Below, piece by piece: positions 28,443 through 46,115 of a DNA stretch of 64,000 nucleotides (position 1 is the first letter of the stretch; every line of letters starts with the position of its first letter). Origin of the DNA: a bacterium (GTDB lineage: Bacteria > UBA9089 > JAHJRX01); assembly GCA_018830565.1 (NCBI GenBank), contig JAHJRX010000056.1, positions 1 to 64,000 on the forward strand. Direction: 5' to 3'. The translations under genes were made by a program, and so were the position numbers. Under the pieces are notes generated by a model. That model saw only the letters and a list, made by a program, of their open reading frames with translations. It searched no databases and had not been told where the DNA came from.

Positions 28443-29399
28443 ATGATTAACGTCAAAAATATTACTAAAAGATTTGGGAATACTATAGCGATAGATAATA
28501 TCTCTTTTGAAGTAAACAAAGGAGAAGTTTTAGGTCTTTTGGGTCCCAATGGGGCAGGAAAGACCACCACCATGAGAATCTTAACTTGTTTCTTTCCTCC
28601 CAATAACGGAACAGCTACTTTAGCTGGTTATGATATTCTTGAAAACCCCCTTCAGGTAAAAAAGATAGTCGGTTATCTTCCAGAAAATGCACCTTTGTAT
28701 TTAAATATGAGTGTTCTGGATTACTTAGACTTTATCGCTAAAATTAGAGGATTTAAAGAGTTAGAAAGCAAGAAAAAGATTAAAGAGATGATTGAAGTTT
28801 GCAGCCTCCAAAAAGCAATAAGCAAAGATATTGGTGAGCTTTCTAAAGGTTATCGCCAAAGGGTGGGGTTAGCTCAAGCCCTGATTCATGACCCAGAAAT
28901 TCTCATCTTAGATGAACCCACGGCAGGGTTAGATCCAAGTCAAATTATAGAAATTCGTAAACTCATTAAAGAGATTGGAAAGAAGAAGACGGTTATTTTA
29001 AGTACTCATATCTTACCAGAAGTTTCGGCTACTTGTAGTCGAGTCTTAATCATTAATGAAGGAAAGCTGGTAGCTAGTGGCAGTCCTAGTGAGCTTATTA
29101 AGAAAGCTAAAGGAAAAGAAAATATTTATCTTACCATAAGAGGTCCCAAAAAGGAAATTAAAGATAAAATAGCTTTAGCAAAGGATGTCCTTACAGTAGA
29201 AGAGGTTAGCGAAAAAGATGATCTAACTACTTTTTTAGTTCAGGGTAAAGTTGGGGCTAATTTAAGTGAAGATTTATTTTTTTTAGCCAGAGATAATCAT
29301 TGGAGTCTTACTAGCCTTCATAAAGAAGAGTTAAATTTAGAAGATTTATTCTTACAGTTAACCACCAAGGAAGCTAATACGAGAGAAAATTATGAATAA
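28443..29399 (+). CDS. ABC transporter ATPase, GldA-like
   Basis: ATPase of an ABC-2 type exporter. Walker A GPNGAGKTTTM (about residues 35-45), signature LSKGYRQRVGLAQAL, Walker B ILILDEPTAGLDP, and H-loop STHILPE. The C-terminal extension after residue 220 is typical for GldA/NatA-like proteins. The neighbours are a GldF-like permease and a GldG-like protein, so this is the cluster's ATPase. In Bacteroidetes GldAFG is needed for gliding; elsewhere the substrate is unknown. No good ribosome site precedes ATG 28443. Confidence 0.9.
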   Translation: MINVKNITKRFGNTIAIDNISFEVNKGEVLGLLGPNGAGKTTTMRILTCFFPPNNGTATLAGYDILENPLQVKKIVGYLPENAPLYLNMSVLDYLDFIAKIRGFKELESKKKIKEMIEVCSLQKAISKDIGELSKGYRQRVGLAQALIHDPEILILDEPTAGLDPSQIIEIRKLIKEIGKKKTVILSTHILPEVSATCSRVLIINEGKLVASGSPSELIKKAKGKENIYLTIRGPKKEIKDKIALAKDVLTVEEVSEKDDLTTFLVQGKVGANLSEDLFFLARDNHWSLTSLHKEELNLEDLFLQLTTKEANTRENYE

Positions 29400-30105
29400 C
29401 ATCTTTATTATTCTTAAAAAAGAATTTAACAGTTACTTTAATTCCCATATTGCTTATATCTTTATCACTGTCTTTTTAGTTTTATCTGGTTGGTTATTTT
29501 TAAGGGGATTCTTTATTATCAACCAAGCTACTATGCGCGAGTATTTTGAGATCTTACCTTGGTTGTTTCTTTTCTTTGTCCCAGCAATTACCATGAGATT
29601 ATGGGCCGAAGAAAGTAACTTAGGAACTTTAGAAATCTTATTTACTCTTCCTTTGAAAAATTACGAAATTGTTTTAGGAAAATTCTTAGGTAGTCTCTTA
29701 TTCTTAATCTTAAATCTTTGCTTAACCTTCACTATTCCCTTAATAATAACCCTGGTAGGAGATCCAGACTTAGGACCTATCATTGGAGGTTATTTAGGAA
29801 CAATCTTGTTGGGAGGAGCTTATCTATCCATTGGCTTATTTGCCTCGGCTCTTACTAAAAACCAAATTATAGCTTTTATTATAGGAGTGGTTATTTCTTT
29901 CGCCTTATTAATCATTGGAGAAAACTTTATTCTCTTGTTTCTTCCCGATTCTTTAATCTTTATCTTTAAGTATTTAGGATTAGGAGTTCATTTTGACAGC
30001 ATGGGACGAGGGGTAATTGATAGCCGAGATATCATATGTTATCTTTCTTTCATTGCTTTCTTCTTATATCTTAATATTCGATTCTTAGAAAGTAAAAAGA
30101 ATTGA
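29392..30105 (+). CDS. ABC-2 permease, GldF-like
   Basis: 237-aa inner-membrane protein with six predicted helices, overlapping the ATPase gene by eight bases. The segment FVPAITMRLWAEESNLGTLE is the ABC-2 family loop seen in GldF-type permeases. The last codons are the first unit of a 47-bp tandem repeat. Confidence 0.9.
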   Translation: MNNIFIILKKEFNSYFNSHIAYIFITVFLVLSGWLFLRGFFIINQATMREYFEILPWLFLFFVPAITMRLWAEESNLGTLEILFTLPLKNYEIVLGKFLGSLLFLILNLCLTFTIPLIITLVGDPDLGPIIGGYLGTILLGGAYLSIGLFASALTKNQIIAFIIGVVISFALLIIGENFILLFLPDSLIFIFKYLGLGVHFDSMGRGVIDSRDIICYLSFIAFFLYLNIRFLESKKN

Positions 30106-30252
30106 TAGTCAAGACATAATATCTTATTTTTTTAGAAAGTAAAAAGAATTGATAGTCAAGACATAATATCTTATTTTTTTAGAAAGTAAAAAGAATTGAT
30201 AGTCAAGACATAATATATTACTTTTTCTTAGATCTTAGATCTTAGAAAGTAA
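30085..30252 (+). repeat. 47-bp tandem repeat of the gldF-like 3' end
   Basis: Units begin at 30085 (last codons and stop of the permease), 30132 and 30179, period 47 bp, with a partial fourth copy at 30242 after an interrupting TTAGATC repeat. All but the first are non-coding. They separate the permease from the next gene by 162 bp. Confidence 0.94.
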
Positions 30253-30267
30253 AAAGTAGGAATAAAG

Positions 30268-31821
30268 ATGGTCAGCCTTAAAAAACTTCAACATAAAATT
30301 AATTCTTTAACTTTAATCTTTATTTTCTTAGGCTTTTTAGGAGTCATTAATTATTTTTCTACAAAGTTATTCTTTAGATTAGACCTTACTGAGAATAAGG
30401 AATTTACGATATCTAAATCGACTAAAGAAGTCTTAAAGAACCTAGATGATCTAGTGAATATTAACCTCTACTTTTCTAAGAAATTGCCCCCTTATTTAGT
30501 AAACTTAACTCAAAAAGTAGATGATCTTTTAAAGGAGTATCAAATTTACTCTAAGGGAAAGATAAAGTTTAATTATTTAGATCCTTCCAAAGACCTAAAA
30601 TTAACGCAAAGTGCTCAACTGATGGGTATTCCTCAAGTCCAATTTAATATTATTGAGAAAGATAAAGCCCAAGTAGTCAATATTTACTTGGGTATAGCTA
30701 TTTTATATGAAGATAAGAAAGAAGTAATTCCTTTAGTTAAAGATACGGATAATTTAGAATATGAGCTTACTTCTAAGATTCTTAAATTAACTTCTCCTCA
30801 AATAAAGACAATTGGATTCTTAACTGGCCACCAGGAACATAGCATTTACCAAGATTATAATGAAATTAGAAATTTACTTGAAAAACAGTATAAAACTTGC
30901 GAGGTAAAGGTAGAAAATAACAAGACTAAAATTAATGTAAATACTTTAATTATTCCAGGACCAAAGGAAAAAATTCCAGAAGAAACAGCTTTAAAAATAA
31001 ACCAATTTATTATGGAAGGAGGGAAGGTTGTCTTTTTACTTGATGCCATTAAGATAGCCGAAGACTCCTTAAATGTTACCCTTAACAATGATGGTCTTGA
31101 CTTCCTTTTAAAAAACTACGGCGTAAGATTAAACAAAAATTTAATTTTAGATCGTAGTTATGCTTTAGCTTCTTTTTCTTCTGGGTTTGCTTACTTTACT
31201 TTACCTTATCCTTTATGGATTAAAATTTTAGCCGAAAATACAGCCTTAAATCATCCTATCATAAGTAAATTAGGTTCTTTAGTCTTTCCTTGGAGTGCCT
31301 CAGTAGAAATACTGCCTTCTTTGGATAAAAAGATAAAAGCTGTAGAATTAGTTAAAACTACAAAACATGCTTGGATTCAAGAAGAATCCTTTAATCTTAA
31401 TCCCCAACAATCTTTTATAAGTCCAAAGACTTCTCAAAGTACCTTAGCCCTGATGCTTAAGGGAAGATTTAAGAGTGCCCTTAAAGAAAAAGATAATATA
31501 ATTAAAGAATCTTCCCCGGAAGCTCAAATTGTCCTTATTGGAAATTCTAATCTTATTACTGATAATTTTATAAGACAATTTAATTTTAATAGTATCTTCT
31601 TCTTAAATATTATAGATTGGCTAAACTTAGGTGATAAATTAATAGACATTCGTTTAAAAGAAGTAATTGACCGTCCCTTAAAAGAGATAAGCGAATACAA
31701 TAAGTCTCTCTTTAAATTTATAGTTATGTTCTTAGCTCCTTTAGGAGTAATTATTTATAGTGGGATAAGATTTTATTTAAAAAACAAGACTAAGAAGTTA
31801 TTAGAGGTATACGAGAAATGA
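30268..31821 (+). CDS. GldG-like ABC-associated membrane protein
   Basis: 517-aa protein with one N-terminal membrane segment (about residues 14-36), a large periplasmic domain of the GldG/ABC_transp_aux type (from about 40; FTISKSTKEVLKNLDD, then VVFLLDAIK) and a C-terminal membrane segment (about 480-502). It accompanies GldA/GldF-type exporters. The stop overlaps the next gene as ATGA. Confidence 0.87.
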   Translation: MVSLKKLQHKINSLTLIFIFLGFLGVINYFSTKLFFRLDLTENKEFTISKSTKEVLKNLDDLVNINLYFSKKLPPYLVNLTQKVDDLLKEYQIYSKGKIKFNYLDPSKDLKLTQSAQLMGIPQVQFNIIEKDKAQVVNIYLGIAILYEDKKEVIPLVKDTDNLEYELTSKILKLTSPQIKTIGFLTGHQEHSIYQDYNEIRNLLEKQYKTCEVKVENNKTKINVNTLIIPGPKEKIPEETALKINQFIMEGGKVVFLLDAIKIAEDSLNVTLNNDGLDFLLKNYGVRLNKNLILDRSYALASFSSGFAYFTLPYPLWIKILAENTALNHPIISKLGSLVFPWSASVEILPSLDKKIKAVELVKTTKHAWIQEESFNLNPQQSFISPKTSQSTLALMLKGRFKSALKEKDNIIKESSPEAQIVLIGNSNLITDNFIRQFNFNSIFFLNIIDWLNLGDKLIDIRLKEVIDRPLKEISEYNKSLFKFIVMFLAPLGVIIYSGIRFYLKNKTKKLLEVYEK

Positions 31822-32774
31822 AGTTTAAGGGAACTTACTTCTCTTTAATGGTCTTAATTACTTTAGTCCTGGCTATCTTTATTACTAAAAAATGCTTTAA
31901 GGAAAAAGAAAGCTTACTTTTTCCAAACTTAGAAGTAGCTGAAATTTCTAAGATTACTATTTTAACTAAAGAAGATAAAGTAATTTTGGAAAAGAAAGCT
32001 AATGAATGGTTAGTTACTACTTCTTTAAATTATCCTGCCAATCCCCAGCAAGTAAAAGATCTTATTGATAAAATCAAGCATCTTTCTAGTAAGAATGTAG
32101 TCTCTATTAATCCTAAGAAAAAAGCCTTTTATGGATTAGATAAAGATTATCTAGAAGTAAGAGTTAGTAAGGCAAAAGATAAAGATATTTCTTGTTTTTT
32201 TATTGGTCAGAATGCTCCTGATTTTTACAGCACCTATATTCAAAAAAAGGATAGCCAAGAGGTAATCTTAATTAATGAAGACCTAAGAGGCATCTTTAAT
32301 AAAGGCAATACTTGTTGGCGAGATCGGACTATACTTAGTTTTAATCCTTGGGAAGTAGATCAACTTATCTTAAATAAAGAAGGAAAAGAAACTATTATCT
32401 CTTCAAAAAAAGAAGGTAAATTTAAAGATGGTAAATTTGAAGATGGTAAATTTGAAATAATTAAACCTGAAAAAATAGAAGCTAAAGAAGAAGTAGTAAA
32501 ATCTATCTTAGATGAACTCTCTAAACTTAAAACAGACAACTTTTATTTAGAAGATAACTTAAAAGTTTGTGGGTTTGACCGTCCCTGTTCTTTTATAAAA
32601 GTGATCTTTAAAAATAAATTAGAAAAGACACTTCTTGTTGGAAATGAGAATAAGAATGATCAAGCTTATTTAAAGAGAGAAGGCAGTTCTACTATCTTTT
32701 TAGTTTCAAAGTATCGTCTCAGTGACTTATTTAGGGAAATAAAAGACTTAAGAAAGGATCTTAAAAAAGAATAA
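31818..32774 (+). CDS. DUF4340 domain protein linked to the Gld-type exporter
   Basis: 318-aa protein with an N-terminal membrane anchor (about residues 7-24) and DUF4340-type beta repeats (ANEWLVTT, YPANPQQVKDLIDKI, YGLDK). DUF4340 proteins are the usual last gene of gldAFG-like operons outside Bacteroidetes; their role is unknown. A 15-bp coding tandem repeat (32415-32456) gives GKFKD-GKFED-GKFE in the middle of the protein. Confidence 0.85.
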   Translation: MKFKGTYFSLMVLITLVLAIFITKKCFKEKESLLFPNLEVAEISKITILTKEDKVILEKKANEWLVTTSLNYPANPQQVKDLIDKIKHLSSKNVVSINPKKKAFYGLDKDYLEVRVSKAKDKDISCFFIGQNAPDFYSTYIQKKDSQEVILINEDLRGIFNKGNTCWRDRTILSFNPWEVDQLILNKEGKETIISSKKEGKFKDGKFEDGKFEIIKPEKIEAKEEVVKSILDELSKLKTDNFYLEDNLKVCGFDRPCSFIKVIFKNKLEKTLLVGNENKNDQAYLKREGSSTIFLVSKYRLSDLFREIKDLRKDLKKE

Positions 32775-37892: not shown

Positions 37893-39242
37893 ATGGTTAA
37901 AACTTATCTAAGGTTCTTTCTCTTGATCGTGATCTTAGAGATGAACTTTGTTACTACCTTATATTCCCAAATAACACCCCTTCATTGGAAAATTTATGAA
38001 GATATCTTTTTAGAAAAGGTAGAAGAAACTACTTCTAAAAAACCTAAAGAAGATCACCTGAATAATAAAGAAAGCCAAGAAATAATTCTTCCCAAGAATA
38101 AAGAAGAAAATATCCTACTCCAGGATTACTATCAAGAAGATAGAAAAAAAGATCTCGGAGAAGAAAAAGAAGAAGAAATAGATGAAAAAGAGATCATCTA
38201 TGTAGAGCCCCCTTATAGTCAAGGTAAAGTTATTAAGGATGAGGCGGTGGATAAAAAAAGAGATCTTATTCCTCCTGAATATCCTGAATATATTTACCAT
38301 CCAAAAAGAGTAAGGGAGCCTTTAAGCTGGAGAGAAATTCCTTTAGAAAAGCGGCTTAAGTTTTTAGATTACCTGGCTGAAAGGTATACTCCAGGCATAG
38401 GGGTTGGAATAGGGTATGCTTTTTTTTCTCCCCAAGAAGTAAAGAACTCTTTAGAGAGATGGGCAAATAATATTTATAGCTATTTTTCAAAAAATTACTC
38501 AGAAGATTTACCTGAAAGAGAAAAAGAAGATATCTTTGTAATACCTAAAGATACAGAAGGAAAAGAGATTATTGAAAGGGCAGTAAATAAATACCAAGGT
38601 TTAGCTAAAGAAAGAGTGATTCGTCCATTAGGAAGTGCTTTTTACAACCTTAATCTTTCTTTTCAAGTAAAGCCAAATTTTTTTCTTGGATTGGGTCTTG
38701 GGAATATATCTTATCTAAGTTCTGCTATGGTAAATTATTCTCAAATAAAAGACGAGCGAGATAATAAACTTACCGATGATTCCGATGACACAGAGATTTA
38801 TACTATGTATTCTGGGGATTTTGCTTTTAAATATTCGATAGAAGCTAATGCTTTTCCTTTAAGGATAAATGGCTTTCTTAAGTATCCTTATCTGAAGTTT
38901 AAAGATACTCATCTCTATACAGGAATAGGGCTATTGATTATTCCTACTATTTTAAAGGTAAATTCTGGGACTACTAAGGACCAAGAAGAAGTATATTCTG
39001 AGGCTAAGTTAAAATTTTTTAAAGTAGGCTATGGGGTCTTGTTTTTTCAAGGTTTCAAATTAGATATCACTGACTGGCTTGGTCTTGAGGGAGTAGTTGA
39101 TTATAAAATAGCTTCGGCTAAGAATTTTAAAGATGACCAAGGAAATTATGAAGCTAATAAGATTTGGTATTTCAAGCCTTCTTCTTTTGGTATGGATTTT
39201 ACAGGTTTTGGATTTAATCTTAGTTTAAACATGGCTTTTTAG
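37893..39242 (+). CDS. Predicted outer-membrane beta-barrel protein
   Basis: I do not recognise a named family. Signal peptide at about residues 1-26, then a highly charged, proline-containing linker (about 45-165) and, from about 210, alternating amphipathic strands typical of an outer-membrane barrel, ending in LNMAF with C-terminal phenylalanine. That plan, periplasmic linker plus barrel, suggests an envelope anchor or porin-like protein. It lies between apgM and secG with a close spacing to both and no promoter seen. Confidence 0.7.
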   Translation: MVKTYLRFFLLIVILEMNFVTTLYSQITPLHWKIYEDIFLEKVEETTSKKPKEDHLNNKESQEIILPKNKEENILLQDYYQEDRKKDLGEEKEEEIDEKEIIYVEPPYSQGKVIKDEAVDKKRDLIPPEYPEYIYHPKRVREPLSWREIPLEKRLKFLDYLAERYTPGIGVGIGYAFFSPQEVKNSLERWANNIYSYFSKNYSEDLPEREKEDIFVIPKDTEGKEIIERAVNKYQGLAKERVIRPLGSAFYNLNLSFQVKPNFFLGLGLGNISYLSSAMVNYSQIKDERDNKLTDDSDDTEIYTMYSGDFAFKYSIEANAFPLRINGFLKYPYLKFKDTHLYTGIGLLIIPTILKVNSGTTKDQEEVYSEAKLKFFKVGYGVLFFQGFKLDITDWLGLEGVVDYKIASAKNFKDDQGNYEANKIWYFKPSSFGMDFTGFGFNLSLNMAF

Positions 39243-41001: not shown

Positions 41002-41030
41002 TTGACCTTGACCAGGGGTTTACTTATTAT
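41002..41030 (+). promoter_or_regulatory. Probable promoter of the SprA-like gene
   Basis: TTGACC (41002-41007), 17 bases, TATTAT (41025-41030). A second overlapping pair, TTGACC 41008-41013 and TATGAT 41030-41035, is also acceptable. Transcription would begin near 41037-41042, after the ATG at 41031, supporting ATG 41076 as the start of the next gene. Confidence 0.6.
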
Positions 41031-41075: not shown

Positions 41076-44000
41076 ATGAAAAAATTTTCTAAGAATAACT
41101 TAGTCATAATCTTGCTTTTAATCTTCCTCATAACTTCTCTAAAAAATGGTTTTTCAGAAGAAGTTTTTCCTCAAAAAGAGACGGTTCAGTCTTTTTTGGC
41201 AAGCTCCCAAACCAAGGAAGTAAAAAAAGACCCTAAAGATGAGAAAGGAGAAGGGGACAAAACTCCTGATGATGAATTAGATCTTAAAAAATTTTTTGAG
41301 AGAGATATTTCTGCCATAGAATCACACATTAATTTCCAAGGAAGAAAGATGATCGAAGCTAAGTTAGGAAATTCTTATTGGGTTAAAGATAAGGAACGAA
41401 AAGATAAGCCTCCTTCTGGAGGATTAGCTGCCGGAGTTGATATTAATCAAGAACTACAAGTAAGAGTCTTAGGAAATATTCAAGATCGAATCTTTACTGA
41501 TATTGATTATGATGATACCGTTACAGATACTCAAACAAGACAAAAATTTCATATAGAGTATAAAGGCAAAGAAAAAGAAGTCGTTAAGGAAGCTGCTTTT
41601 GGAGACTTGCAATTATCTCTTCCTAATACCGAATTTGTTTCTTATAATAAAAATTTATTTGGAATTAAAGCAGCAGTTAATTATAAAAAACTAAGTGTTA
41701 TAGCGGTAGCGAGCCGTACCAAAGGAATTCCTGAAAGTAAGACCTTTAAAGGATATTCCGAACAAAGAACGATCGATATAAGCGATACAAATTTTATGGA
41801 AAGAAAATATTACCAAATTTTAGCTTATTTGCCTTATTTGTCACCACCAAAGGAGATAGGTAAGACTTTGCCCCTCGAAGTTGGGTCAGTTAAGATTTAT
41901 TTAGATAATAGAGTAGGTAGTGATAACCAGAAGGCAACTACGGCGGCAGGAAAAAGTTTTAATAACCAAAATTATTATCGAGGTGAAAATAGCTTTGATG
42001 AGCTTTATCCTATCAGTGATTATGTCATAGACCACCAAACTGGAATGGTTAGTCTTCGTAAAAATATAGGCCAGGACAATATTATCTTAGTGGCTTTTAA
42101 GTCAACTTTAGAAAAAAGAGGATATGATGATCTTGGTAATTTAAATAAAGAAGACCTTCTAATGATTAAAGCTGCTTCAGATATTCCTACGAAAGAAGGC
42201 TATAGCTCTTATAATAAAGAATATTATAAATTTTTTGAACAAAATGGTTATTACTCCTTAGAGATGAATAGTATTAATTTAGATGATAAGGATTTCTTGT
42301 TAGAGATTAGAGATTTAAACAATAAAAATTATGATGATAAGAATAATAATAATGTTAGAGATGGGGATGAGGATGCTTATCTATTTATCTTTGGTCTGGA
42401 TAAGAATAAAGATAATTTAGTAGATTATGAATATATTGACGTTGATTTTGGATTACTCCATTTTCCAAGCTTCACTCCCTTTCTTTTAACAGACGATGAC
42501 CAGCGCTCTAATAAAGACTTATATGATACCCCTAATAAAAAGCCTAAATATAAGATTCATGTAGAATATAAGAGTAAAAAAAAGGAGTTTTTTTTAAGTC
42601 GAATTAATATAGTGATTGATAGTGAAAGAATATACTTAGATGGAAAACTACTTAAAAAAGATCAAGATTACCTTATTGATTATTTTTCTGGTTGGATAAC
42701 TTTTTTAAGAGAAGAAGAGATTGACAAGCAAAGCGAAATTAAGGTTGATTATGAATATATGCCTTTTGGGGGATTATTTAGGAAGAATTTATTAGGGGTG
42801 AGAGGAACATTAGATCTTAGTAAGAATATTTGCCTTGGATCTACTTATATCTACGAAGGAAGTAGTCAAGTTAGGGAGATTCCTGAGATTACTTCTTCTC
42901 CTGAAAGCTTAAGTCTGATCGATATAGATACTAAGATTAATATTTCTTCTATGATCGGGGATCTCTTTAATCTTCCTTCTAAAGATTGGCAGATGGCTAT
43001 CTCTGGAGAGATAGCTAAATCTCAACGTAATTGGAATACTTTTGGAAAAGCAATAATTGATAATATGGAAGGAAACAAAATAAGCTACCATGTTTCTTTA
43101 GATGAAGATTCTTGGAATTTAGGATGGCTTTCTTCTGGTGAAAAAAGAGGAAAGTTGCTTTATAAGTTAGAGTCATATAATGAAAGAGCAGGTCCTTATA
43201 ATGAAGAAGTGGGTCATCTAAACGATGAAGAAAAAAAGAATTCTTTGGTTTTAAAGTATGAAAATACTTTAGAGCAGAGGATAAGTATTGTCAATAGCCT
43301 TTCTAACCCAGGAGTTGACCTTTCAGGATATAAGTATTTAGAGATTTGGGCAAAGATACCAAAACAAGCAAGACTTTATCTAGATTTAGGAATGGTTTGT
43401 GAAGATGCTGATGGGGATGGAATATTGGATAGTGAAGACAAAAATAAAGACCTCTTACTAAATTCTGGAGAAGATACAGGATGGGAGTTTAATGAAGGAA
43501 AGGAAGTTATAACTAAGGTAGGAAAAGGAAATAGTAAGATAGATAGTGAAGATTTAGATAAAGATGGAATCTTAGATACCCAAGAGAAATATTTTACCGT
43601 AGAAGTAAAAGATACTTACCAATCTACCTCTCTTCCAGAAAAGACTAACCCGGAGTGGAAGTTTTATTTAATTCCTTGTTTGGATATAGAGAAGACCATA
43701 GAGGGAAGTAATGAAGAAAAGAAAAAGCTGTGGGAGGTGATTAAGCATCTTCGCCTTAGAGTAGAAGGAGGTGAAAGTGGTGAAATTAACATCGATCAGA
43801 TCTCTTTTGTGGCTAATAAATGGCAAGGAAAGGATATCATCGTTAAATCTTTAAACAGTCAAGACAATCCAGAGTATAAGTCTCTAAAAGATGACCTTCA
43901 ATATGGTAAAGACTTTAAGGATCTCTATAAATATGTAGATCTTGAAAAAGAAGAAGCTTTAGTCTTAAATTATGACTTAGAAAAAAATAAAGAAGGATTT

Positions 44001-46115
44001 GCTTTTTATAAATATAAGAAGGCTCAAAATTATACTGGTTATAAATACCTTAATTATTTTGTTTATGGAGATGGAAAGGGAGAAGAGTTTTTTATTTGGT
44101 TAGGAAACGATGATCAAAACTATCTTAAATATAAGAGTAAGATGGACTTTACCGGCTGGAAGTTAATAAAGGTAGATCTAATAGAGCTTAATCGACATCT
44201 TCTTAAGCTTCAGTTAGGAGGTTCCCCTCCTTATTCTTTCCAAGAAGGTTCTTATGAGATTAAAGGTAATCCTTCTTTAAGTAATATTAATGAAGTTAGA
44301 TTAGGGATAAGAGGAGATGGACAAAAGGGAGAAATTTGGGTTAATGAAGTCTTTCTATCAGAGAATATGATTAAAGAAGGCCAGGCAAAAAGAGTTACTA
44401 TTAATACTAACTATAAAGATTTTTTAAACTTAAAATGGAGTAAAAAAGAAATCGATAGAAATTTTGAAAACATAGACCGTGTTTCTCCTTTACAAGATAA
44501 AGAATGGCAAAATTTTGATGCTTCCCTAAGTATAATTAAATGTCTACCTATGAATTATAGCTTTCAAAAGGAAAAAACTTTGACTGATCCGGCAGAAGAT
44601 CCCGTAAGGAGTGAAAATATAACTATCTCCAACTTTGGCCAGAGAATCTTTAGGCAGCATAACACCGGGGTAAAGTTTTCTTTACCCAAGCTACCTACGG
44701 TTAAGGCTAATTATGTTACCAGTAAGAATAAAAATGATTATCAAAATGAAGAAAGAATGGAAGATAGTAAAGCCTTATCAGTTAATATGAATTATCAATA
44801 CCAATTTCCTTTGAAAATTTGGATTATTCCAACTGGAGAAAGTCTTAGTGTTTCATTAGTCTGTAAATATAATGGGGAGATTAGAAAGACTGAGTATCCC
44901 AGAGAAGCCAGTAAAGATTCTTACCTAAGAGAGAAAGGCTTAGGAAACTCTATCACTATCAATTATACGCCTATCTCCATCTTAGGAATTAATACTTTAT
45001 TTAACTTCGAGAGAAAGGATCAAAAAGAAAGAGAGAGTTATTATCCTAAATTTAGATTAATTGAAAATAACTATGATTTAAACATCTATAAGATTAAAGG
45101 TTTAGCACCTAAAGTTGGTCTTAAATCTTTCCTGAGTGAAGATTACTTAATTAAAGAAAGATACAAGAATGTCAAGACTAATCTTTCTTTTAATGTAGGA
45201 AGTAACATTGCATTAGGAGAGTGGTGGTTACCACTAAAGTTAGTAGTCTTTAATCCAAGTTATAGTTTATCCCTTGCCGCAAGTTATGATAAGATTAGTG
45301 GAGATTTAAACACTAAGGATACCCTTAAAGAAATTTATAGAGATTATTACCTTGATAAACTTTTATTTAATCATTCTAAATCAAGATCATCTTTAGAGAG
45401 CCTTAGAAAGAGTGCTTCTAAAAAAGCAACTTATGATCTTTCTAGCAATTGGTACTTATGGAAACCATTGGATTTATCGATTACTTCTACTTTAGAAAAG
45501 AATACTCAGCAAACTTTAAGCTCAATAAGATACCAAGAATCTATTACTTATCGAGGCACGTCAAGATTTAACTTAATGAAGATATTTTCCAAGTTAAAAG
45601 ATCTAGCTGAAAGTTCGTATCTAATCCTTAACTATAGTCGAAATAAAATTACCGAGCCAGCAATTTCTACTTTTATTTCAATTAACCCTGATACTCTTTG
45701 GAGCGTGAATTGGAATAAAAGTTTTCGGAGCAGTCTCTCTATGAACTATAAAGAAAGTAAGAAGATCTATCCTAAAAATACTACCCTTAGCAAGACAGTA
45801 ATGCCCAAGCTTTTATTAAATTATACTGTTTTAAAACCTAAGAAAATAAAGATTTTATTTACTAAAAAGTATGTTTATTTAAAGAATAGGTTAGAAAATA
45901 AGTTAAGTCTAGACGGTGTCTTAAATAAAGAAGATACTGGCCAAACCAAGAAAGAGACCAGGCAATATAATTTAGGCTTAGGGTGTGATTATAAAGTAAA
46001 AGATACCGTTATCGTAGAAGTATGGACTAAGAGTGCTTATTTTCAAGATAAGATTGAGAAATATAAAGATTATTTTTCTTATGAAGCTTCAGTAAAAGTA
46101 GAATTTAGATTTTAA
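41076..46115 (+). CDS. SprA-like giant outer-membrane protein
   Basis: 1679-aa exported protein. A signal peptide (MKKFSKNNLVIILLLIFLIT) is followed by a short acidic linker and text closely resembling SprA, the outer-membrane translocon of the Bacteroidetes type IX secretion system: FGDLQLSLPNTEFVSYNKNL then FGIKAAVNYKKLSVIAVASR, and later LFRKNLLGVRG, GWITFL. Around residues 775-845 there are Asp-rich calcium-type repeats (DADGDGILDSED, DLDKDGILDTQE). The C-terminal third is strand-rich and ends VKVEFRF, as in outer-membrane barrels. It is shorter than typical Bacteroidetes SprA (about 2400 aa). An in-frame ATG at 41031 lies inside the promoter, so 41076 is preferred. Identity as SprA family is recognition by pattern, not search. 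Confidence 0.78.
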   Translation: MKKFSKNNLVIILLLIFLITSLKNGFSEEVFPQKETVQSFLASSQTKEVKKDPKDEKGEGDKTPDDELDLKKFFERDISAIESHINFQGRKMIEAKLGNSYWVKDKERKDKPPSGGLAAGVDINQELQVRVLGNIQDRIFTDIDYDDTVTDTQTRQKFHIEYKGKEKEVVKEAAFGDLQLSLPNTEFVSYNKNLFGIKAAVNYKKLSVIAVASRTKGIPESKTFKGYSEQRTIDISDTNFMERKYYQILAYLPYLSPPKEIGKTLPLEVGSVKIYLDNRVGSDNQKATTAAGKSFNNQNYYRGENSFDELYPISDYVIDHQTGMVSLRKNIGQDNIILVAFKSTLEKRGYDDLGNLNKEDLLMIKAASDIPTKEGYSSYNKEYYKFFEQNGYYSLEMNSINLDDKDFLLEIRDLNNKNYDDKNNNNVRDGDEDAYLFIFGLDKNKDNLVDYEYIDVDFGLLHFPSFTPFLLTDDDQRSNKDLYDTPNKKPKYKIHVEYKSKKKEFFLSRINIVIDSERIYLDGKLLKKDQDYLIDYFSGWITFLREEEIDKQSEIKVDYEYMPFGGLFRKNLLGVRGTLDLSKNICLGSTYIYEGSSQVREIPEITSSPESLSLIDIDTKINISSMIGDLFNLPSKDWQMAISGEIAKSQRNWNTFGKAIIDNMEGNKISYHVSLDEDSWNLGWLSSGEKRGKLLYKLESYNERAGPYNEEVGHLNDEEKKNSLVLKYENTLEQRISIVNSLSNPGVDLSGYKYLEIWAKIPKQARLYLDLGMVCEDADGDGILDSEDKNKDLLLNSGEDTGWEFNEGKEVITKVGKGNSKIDSEDLDKDGILDTQEKYFTVEVKDTYQSTSLPEKTNPEWKFYLIPCLDIEKTIEGSNEEKKKLWEVIKHLRLRVEGGESGEINIDQISFVANKWQGKDIIVKSLNSQDNPEYKSLKDDLQYGKDFKDLYKYVDLEKEEALVLNYDLEKNKEGFAFYKYKKAQNYTGYKYLNYFVYGDGKGEEFFIWLGNDDQNYLKYKSKMDFTGWKLIKVDLIELNRHLLKLQLGGSPPYSFQEGSYEIKGNPSLSNINEVRLGIRGDGQKGEIWVNEVFLSENMIKEGQAKRVTINTNYKDFLNLKWSKKEIDRNFENIDRVSPLQDKEWQNFDASLSIIKCLPMNYSFQKEKTLTDPAEDPVRSENITISNFGQRIFRQHNTGVKFSLPKLPTVKANYVTSKNKNDYQNEERMEDSKALSVNMNYQYQFPLKIWIIPTGESLSVSLVCKYNGEIRKTEYPREASKDSYLREKGLGNSITINYTPISILGINTLFNFERKDQKERESYYPKFRLIENNYDLNIYKIKGLAPKVGLKSFLSEDYLIKERYKNVKTNLSFNVGSNIALGEWWLPLKLVVFNPSYSLSLAASYDKISGDLNTKDTLKEIYRDYYLDKLLFNHSKSRSSLESLRKSASKKATYDLSSNWYLWKPLDLSITSTLEKNTQQTLSSIRYQESITYRGTSRFNLMKIFSKLKDLAESSYLILNYSRNKITEPAISTFISINPDTLWSVNWNKSFRSSLSMNYKESKKIYPKNTTLSKTVMPKLLLNYTVLKPKKIKILFTKKYVYLKNRLENKLSLDGVLNKEDTGQTKKETRQYNLGLGCDYKVKDTVIVEVWTKSAYFQDKIEKYKDYFSYEASVKVEFRF

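What the first reader, a model, noticed from the sequence alone, without database searches (positions are those of the whole stretch)
41076..46115. SprA-like protein with Gld-type exporter genes in a genome otherwise unlike Bacteroidetes
The 1679-aa protein has the SprA N-terminal pattern and barrel-type C-terminus. SprA is the translocon of the type IX secretion system and of gliding in Bacteroidetes. Here it stands alone with its own promoter, 700 aa shorter, with calcium-type Asp repeats, and a GldA/GldF/GldG-like exporter lies 9 kb away. This could be a reduced or ancestral T9SS-like outer-membrane export channel that works with a Gram-negative lineage carrying type IV pili.
Basis: partly seen in the sequence, partly recalled or inferred. 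Interest (0 to 1): 0.75.

Follow-up and report, generated by a model that had tools for sequence, protein, structure and literature searches.

The report
Type IX secretion channel outside Bacteroidetes
This bacterium, from an uncultured phylum far from Bacteroidetes, carries the giant outer-membrane channel, the carrier proteins and the tagged cargo of the type IX protein secretion system but none of the usual motor parts that could be looked for, so the system is more widespread, and perhaps simpler, than the literature says.

Summary
The gene at 41076-46115 encodes a genuine SprA homologue. It matches the NCBI SprA profile (TIGR04189, E 2e-55, 187.7 bits, just under the 200-bit equivalog cut-off). 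Profile-profile comparison with canonical SprA gives E 1e-80 over 1109 columns. AlphaFold models of both halves find the four solved SprA chains as the top four PDB matches (down to 4e-47). The genome belongs to the candidate phylum Desantisbacteria. All 19 genomes held for that phylum have one, the gene tree makes them one clade, and relatives occur in Elusimicrobiota, Aerophobetes and others. The same genome encodes about 8 PorV/PorQ-family carrier genes (7 above the family cut-off) and about 10 secreted proteins ending in type IX sorting domains. Cargo and carrier genes sit side by side: 4 of 8 carriers here, and 18 of 23 carrier loci in sister genomes. GldM, GldN, GldL and the C25 (PorU) peptidase are not detected; controls were positive for GldM and GldN. 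I conclude it is the translocon of a type IX-like system outside the FCB superphylum, a new variant with cargo-specific carriers and an unidentified energy source. The "Gld" exporter nearby is a generic ABC-2 cluster; links to it or to type IV pili are not supported. Export itself is inferred, not shown.

The parts
41076..46115 (+). SprA-like giant outer-membrane beta-barrel (translocon), 1679 aa
   Evidence: TIGR04189 E 2.2e-55; hhalign to canonical SprA E 1.2e-80; Foldseek top four = SprA chains for both halves
41076..41159 (+). predicted Sec signal peptide (about residues 1-28)
   Evidence: sequence directly: MKKFSKNN-LVIILLLIFLITSLKNGFS; inference
41253..41816 (+). SprA profile stretch 1 (TIGR04189 positions 75-255)
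   Evidence: E 1.7e-17
41934..43124 (+). SprA profile stretch 2 (positions 349-785)
   Evidence: E 1.2e-28
43371..43568 (+). Asp-rich, calcium-type repeats (EDADGDGILDSED...DSEDLDKDGILDT), shared with canonical SprA
   Evidence: (invariant D770, G772, E776, D779, E787, D788, D823, E825, D826)
44241..44561 (+). SprA profile stretch 3 (positions 1387-1502)
   Evidence: E 9.1e-12
41002..41030 (+). sigma-70-like promoter TTGACC-17-TATTAT upstream of ATG 41076
   Evidence: consensus match only, not enriched over shuffles
28443..32774 (+). generic ABC-2 exporter cluster (ATPase, permease, PF09822 GldG-like, DUF4340), judged NOT part of the system
   Evidence: neighbourhood not conserved

Best explanation
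The protein is the SprA/Sov translocon of a type IX-like secretion system native to Ca. Desantisbacteria. Large secreted proteins (among them a subtilase, a GH39-like protein and Ig/PKD-rich adhesin-like proteins) cross the inner membrane by Sec, carrying a C-terminal sorting domain. Each enters the SprA barrel, where its sorting domain is caught by a PorV-family barrel docked at the lateral opening. The cargo then leaves sideways with its carrier and stays on the cell surface, bound to it. Unlike Bacteroidota, where one PorV serves all type A cargo, many cargo genes here come with their own PorV-family gene next to them, so carrier and cargo would be made as a pair. What pulls the loaded carrier off SprA is unknown: GldL/GldM/GldN are not recognisable. 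An ExbB-ExbD-TonB-type motor in the genome is a candidate but has no direct support. Shown here: homology, fold, co-occurrence, pairing, failure to find the listed parts. Inferred: actual export, carrier docking, surface retention, energy source.
For: SprA profile; profile-profile match to canonical SprA; fold matches to SprA with E-values many orders of magnitude better than any other outer-membrane protein. PorV_fam genes in the same genome (NF033709, best 3.4e-60, 7 genes above cut-off plus one fragmentary) and 11 TIGR04183 matches on secreted-type proteins. Adjacent cargo-carrier pairs: own contigs C6, C3 and C52 directly, C62 with one ORF between; sister genomes 18 of 23 PorV loci (binomial 1e-23). 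SprA, PorV and CTD co-occur across 42 genomes outside the phylum (Fisher 5e-7 to 1e-9). Elusimicrobiota/Aerophobetes loci carry cargo-PorV pairs within a few genes of the SprA-like gene. Mechanistic template: SprA-PorV-substrate structures (PMC10994853) and cognate cargo-shuttle pairs for type B cargo (PMC12618676).
Against: No experiment. SprA score is under the equivalog cut-off. GldM and GldN, essential in Bacteroidota T9SS, are not found although positive controls ring; GldL not found, without a control. No C25/PorU peptidase in this genome. Sorting-domain matches are weak individually (best 1.6e-8) and resemble FlgD Ig-like domains. sprA is not itself beside a PorV or cargo gene in this genome.
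Confidence: 0.82

Rival explanations
1. The gene is a full, conventional T9SS translocon and the motor and ring (GldL, GldM, GldN, GldK) are present but too diverged for the profiles, so this is an ordinary T9SS in an unsampled phylum.
For: GldM and GldN also fail in other SprA-positive non-Bacteroidota genomes with strong SprA hits (G019, G021, G025), so the profiles may be Bacteroidota-specific. GldK, SprE and SprT were not tested.
Against: No GldM match in any of 19 phylum genomes (E<=0.1), while true Bacteroidota-like genomes give 1e-108 and 1e-118; GldN the same.
Confidence: 0.4
2. A SprA-derived giant barrel with a different job (for example lipid, LPS or glycan export), the PorV-like barrels being FadL-type transporters and the CTDs FlgD-like Ig domains unrelated to secretion.
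For: sprA lies divergently beside LPS-export permeases LptF/LptG in 27 of 71 related loci; CTD scores are modest.
Against: Tight cargo-PorV gene pairing and SprA/PorV/CTD co-occurrence fit secretion and are not expected from this reading.
Confidence: 0.12
3. Contamination or recent horizontal transfer from Bacteroidetes.
For: Metagenome-assembled genome.
Against: G+C uniform along the window; present in all 19 phylum genomes; Desantisbacteria sequences form one clade, support 97/94.
Confidence: 0.02

Closest known systems
T9SS translocon SprA/Sov with PorV (Flavobacterium johnsoniae, Porphyromonas gingivalis; PDB 6H3I, 8GL6, 8GL8)
   Same: Same family over more than 1100 columns, same predicted fold in both halves, Asp-rich motif, PorV-family partners and C-terminal sorting domains in the genome.
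   Different: About 700 aa shorter; no recognisable GldL/GldM/GldN or C25 peptidase; several PorV genes instead of one; outside the FCB superphylum, to which the literature confines T9SS (PMC12421860, PMC11285876).
Type B cargo with dedicated PorP/SprF shuttle encoded next door (PMC12618676)
   Same: Cargo gene adjacent to its own outer-membrane carrier gene, usually carrier downstream.
   Different: Here the carrier is PorV/PorQ family (NF033709) and the sorting domains score mostly as type A (TIGR04183), which in Bacteroidota all share one PorV.
T9SS reported or suspected in other FCB phyla (Gemmatimonadota, Cloacimonadota, Fibrobacterota, cited in PMC11285876)
   Same: SprA, PorV and CTD set outside Bacteroidota.
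   Different: Those phyla are FCB; [quoted passage not shown]

Membership tests
SprA/Sov (T9SS translocon) family | Sequence homology to SprA | tested here: met
   TIGR04189 E 2.2e-55 but 187.7 of 200 bits; hhalign E 1.2e-80
SprA/Sov (T9SS translocon) family | Pfam SprA_N (PF14349) | tested here: not met
   no match at E<=1; superseded by the full-length profile and fold results
SprA/Sov (T9SS translocon) family | SprA fold (giant barrel) | tested here: met
   Foldseek top four PDB matches are SprA for residues 70-760 (3.4e-32) and 480-1679 (4.1e-47); modelled as two fragments, TM-scores 0.3-0.5
SprA/Sov (T9SS translocon) family | Lateral opening that docks PorV | not testable with these tools
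   needs a full-length complex model or structure
Type IX secretion system | PorV-family carrier | tested here: met
   NF033709 up to 3.4e-60, 7 genes above cut-off
Type IX secretion system | Cargo with C-terminal sorting domain | tested here: met
   11 TIGR04183 matches at E<=0.01, best 1.6e-8, 7 above cut-off on their own
Type IX secretion system | GldM of the GldL/GldM motor | tested here: not met
   absent in 19 genomes, control positive in two others; profile sensitivity is the limit
Type IX secretion system | GldL of the GldL/GldM motor | tested here: inconclusive
   no match in the phylum, but no positive control rang
Type IX secretion system | GldN ring component | tested here: not met
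   absent in 12 phylum genomes searched; control positive
Type IX secretion system | GldK, SprE/PorW, SprT/PorT | not tested
Type IX secretion system | C25-family sortase PorU | tested here: not met
   no PF01364 match in this genome; C25 proteins occur in 9 of 18 sister genomes, not shown to be PorU
Bacteroidete gliding machinery | GldA/GldF/GldG exporter linked to sprA | tested here: not met
   generic ABC-2, PF09822 and DUF4340 cluster; no conserved linkage

The most novel reading that the evidence does not exclude
A type IX-like translocon that works without the GldLM motor and GldKN ring, each cargo being extracted by its own co-encoded PorV-family carrier and powered another way (for example an ExbBD-TonB-type motor or cargo folding); this would be an early or minimal form of T9SS shared by Desantisbacteria, Elusimicrobiota and Aerophobetes.
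Probability: 0.35. Interest if true: 0.82.

Novelty: new variant of a known kind. Interest (0 to 1): 0.64.

Why it matters
Current papers state that T9SS is exclusive to the Bacteroidetes-Chlorobi-Fibrobacteres (FCB) superphylum. A translocon, carriers and tagged cargo in several phyla outside it would move the origin of the system back, give a stripped set of parts against which to ask what the rotary motor is for, and predict which proteins uncultured lineages put on their surface. Elusimicrobiota include cultivated members, so the question may be testable at the bench.

Tried and rejected
A single-sequence scan of genome contigs found no relatives; the alignment query found 371. phmmer against PDB sequences found nothing useful; only the fold comparison did. 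The first GldM search had no positive control and was repeated on 290 genomes. A full-length tree timed out and was replaced by residues 70-760. Conserved gene neighbourhood of sprA in Desantisbacteria: none found. Contamination or recent transfer rejected. The 'Gld' exporter rejected as a functional partner. ExbB-ExbD-TonB operon noted as a candidate energy source only. Literature searches found no report of T9SS in Desantisbacteria or Elusimicrobiota in the held open-access library; subscription papers and preprints were not searchable.

Full report
Observation. The frame 41076-46115 (+) is intact and encodes 1679 aa with a signal peptide. The NCBIfam SprA equivalog profile TIGR04189 matches at E 2.2e-55, 187.7 bits against a cut-off of 200. 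Pfam gives only a weak CBM_11 stretch and no SprA_N. In the genome-wide search the match falls in three blocks along one frame (profile 75-255, 349-785, 1387-1502). So the similarity is real and spans the protein, but the protein lies outside the profile's equivalog range.

Which organism. The window is nearly all of a 64-kb contig of a 1.7-Mb, 99% complete genome. Genomes of the same phylum include one whose sprA contig is letter for letter MNYI01000094.1, Candidatus Desantisbacteria CG2_30_40_21. The host is therefore a member of Ca. Desantisbacteria (NCBI: Desantisiibacteriota), not of the FCB group. The genome has flagellar genes, and the window itself has a type IV pilus secretin and a PilT-family ATPase.

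Distribution and descent. All 19 genomes held for the phylum have a match. Sixteen members align along their length and end in a barrel-type aromatic residue or nearly so (1653-2486 aa). Using the alignment, 371 relatives were found in genome contigs, the best 80 labelled mainly Elusimicrobiota, Aerophobetes and Desantisbacteria, with single records labelled Mcinerneyibacteriota, Sumerlaeota, Caldiserica and Bacillota, some of which may be mislabelled bins. A maximum-likelihood tree on residues 70-760 puts the Desantisbacteria proteins in one clade (97/94) apart from the canonical SprA rows. Together with uniform G+C this argues for old, vertical inheritance within the phylum and against contamination or recent transfer. 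The deep branching order is not resolved.

Fold. Two overlapping fragments were modelled on alignments of about 70 sequences. Residues 70-760: pLDDT 80.7; the four solved SprA chains are the top hits (8gl6 3.4e-32, 8gl8, 6h3i, 6h3j 4.9e-17), the next match, a porin, at 1.9e-4. Residues 480-1679: pLDDT 82.3; again the four SprA chains (4.1e-47 to 4.2e-36), then 2.1e-6 for an unrelated OMP. Profile-profile comparison with two canonical SprA proteins gives probability 100%, E 1.2e-80 over 1109 columns. TM-scores are modest (0.3-0.5), probably because each model is part of one giant barrel, so the lateral opening itself could not be checked.

Partners. In the same genome NF033709 (PorV/PorQ family) finds about 8 genes, seven above its cut-off, and TIGR04183 (type A sorting domain) finds 11 matches, seven above cut-off on their own. 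Most of the proteins that bear the domains start with signal peptides, and they include a subtilase, a GH39-like protein and Ig/PKD/cadherin-type proteins. Cargo and carrier genes are neighbours: contigs C6, C3 and C52 directly, C62 with one ORF between, where the cargo may be split by a frameshift. In 18 of 23 a CTD gene lies on the same strand next to, or within about 0.8 kb of, the PorV gene. With a 3% chance per locus that has probability 1e-23; the 3% is my estimate, and the sample is not phylogenetically independent. In Elusimicrobiota and Aerophobetes, cargo-PorV pairs lie within a few genes of the SprA-like gene (L061, L065, L112, L114, L099). Across 42 genomes outside the phylum, SprA, PorV and CTDs co-occur (Fisher 2e-8, 5e-7, 1e-9).

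What is missing. GldM is not found in any of the 19 genomes, while two other genomes in the same search give 3e-108 and 5e-118. GldN behaves the same way in 12 phylum genomes. GldL found nothing in the phylum but no control rang. This genome has no C25 peptidase, the family of the PorU sortase, though 9 of 18 sister genomes have C25 proteins. GldK, SprE/PorW and SprT were not tested. Other SprA-positive genomes outside Bacteroidota also lack GldM and GldN matches, so either the profiles are Bacteroidota-specific or many such systems use another motor. The genome has an ExbB-ExbD-TonB operon (contig C79), which is a candidate and no more.

Mechanism. In F. johnsoniae, PorV docks at SprA's lateral opening, binds the cargo CTD inside the pore and is pulled away with it (PMC10994853). 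Type B cargo there uses dedicated PorP/SprF shuttles often encoded next door, while all type A cargo shares PorV (PMC12618676). The gene arrangement here suggests the same route with dedicated PorV-family carriers for type A-like domains. Homology, fold, co-occurrence and pairing are shown; export, docking, surface retention and energy input are inferred.

Known or new. Recent papers state that T9SS is exclusive to the FCB superphylum (PMC12421860; [quoted passage not shown] No open-access paper found here reports it in Desantisbacteria or Elusimicrobiota. I file the gene as a member of the SprA family and the system as a new variant of T9SS. It is not filed as a conventional T9SS, because two defining components (GldM, GldN) were tested with working controls and not found.

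The SprA reading and the phylum argument hold. The Gld-type exporter is a generic ABC-2 cluster, sprA has no conserved neighbours in the phylum, and no evidence ties it to type IV pili or gliding.

Noticed in passing
L045, L065, L079, L082-L101 and others, directly upstream of the SprA-like gene: Two LptF/LptG genes (PF03739, LPS export permeases) lie divergently next to sprA in 27 of 71 loci that have an upstream neighbour (both genes in 22), in Elusimicrobiota and also in a genome with a canonical SprA (G019), suggesting an old linkage of SprA and LPS export.
   Followed up: partly
L229:1272-4736, L230:1543-5118 and about ten other genomes: A second family of roughly 1100-1200 aa proteins matches only SprA profile positions about 600-714; it occurs in several Desantisbacteria and in a Bacteroidota-like genome but was not found in the window's genome.
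   Followed up: partly
window 37893-39242 +: 449-aa protein with a signal peptide and a barrel-like C-terminus, no match in Pfam or NCBIfam.
   Followed up: partly
L164:7596-10351 - (own contig C62): A CTD cargo gene seems split into two overlapping frames of 447 and 483 aa, either a frameshift in the assembly or a broken gene.
   Followed up: no
genome G080: Has strong GldM and GldN matches but no SprA match.
   Followed up: no
records L050, L052, L058, L105: Titles such as Nitrospira sp., Marinifilum sp., Clostridia and Bacillota on contigs with SprA-like genes; L050 and L052 correspond to Desantisbacteria-phylum genomes here, so the public labels are probably wrong.
   Followed up: partly
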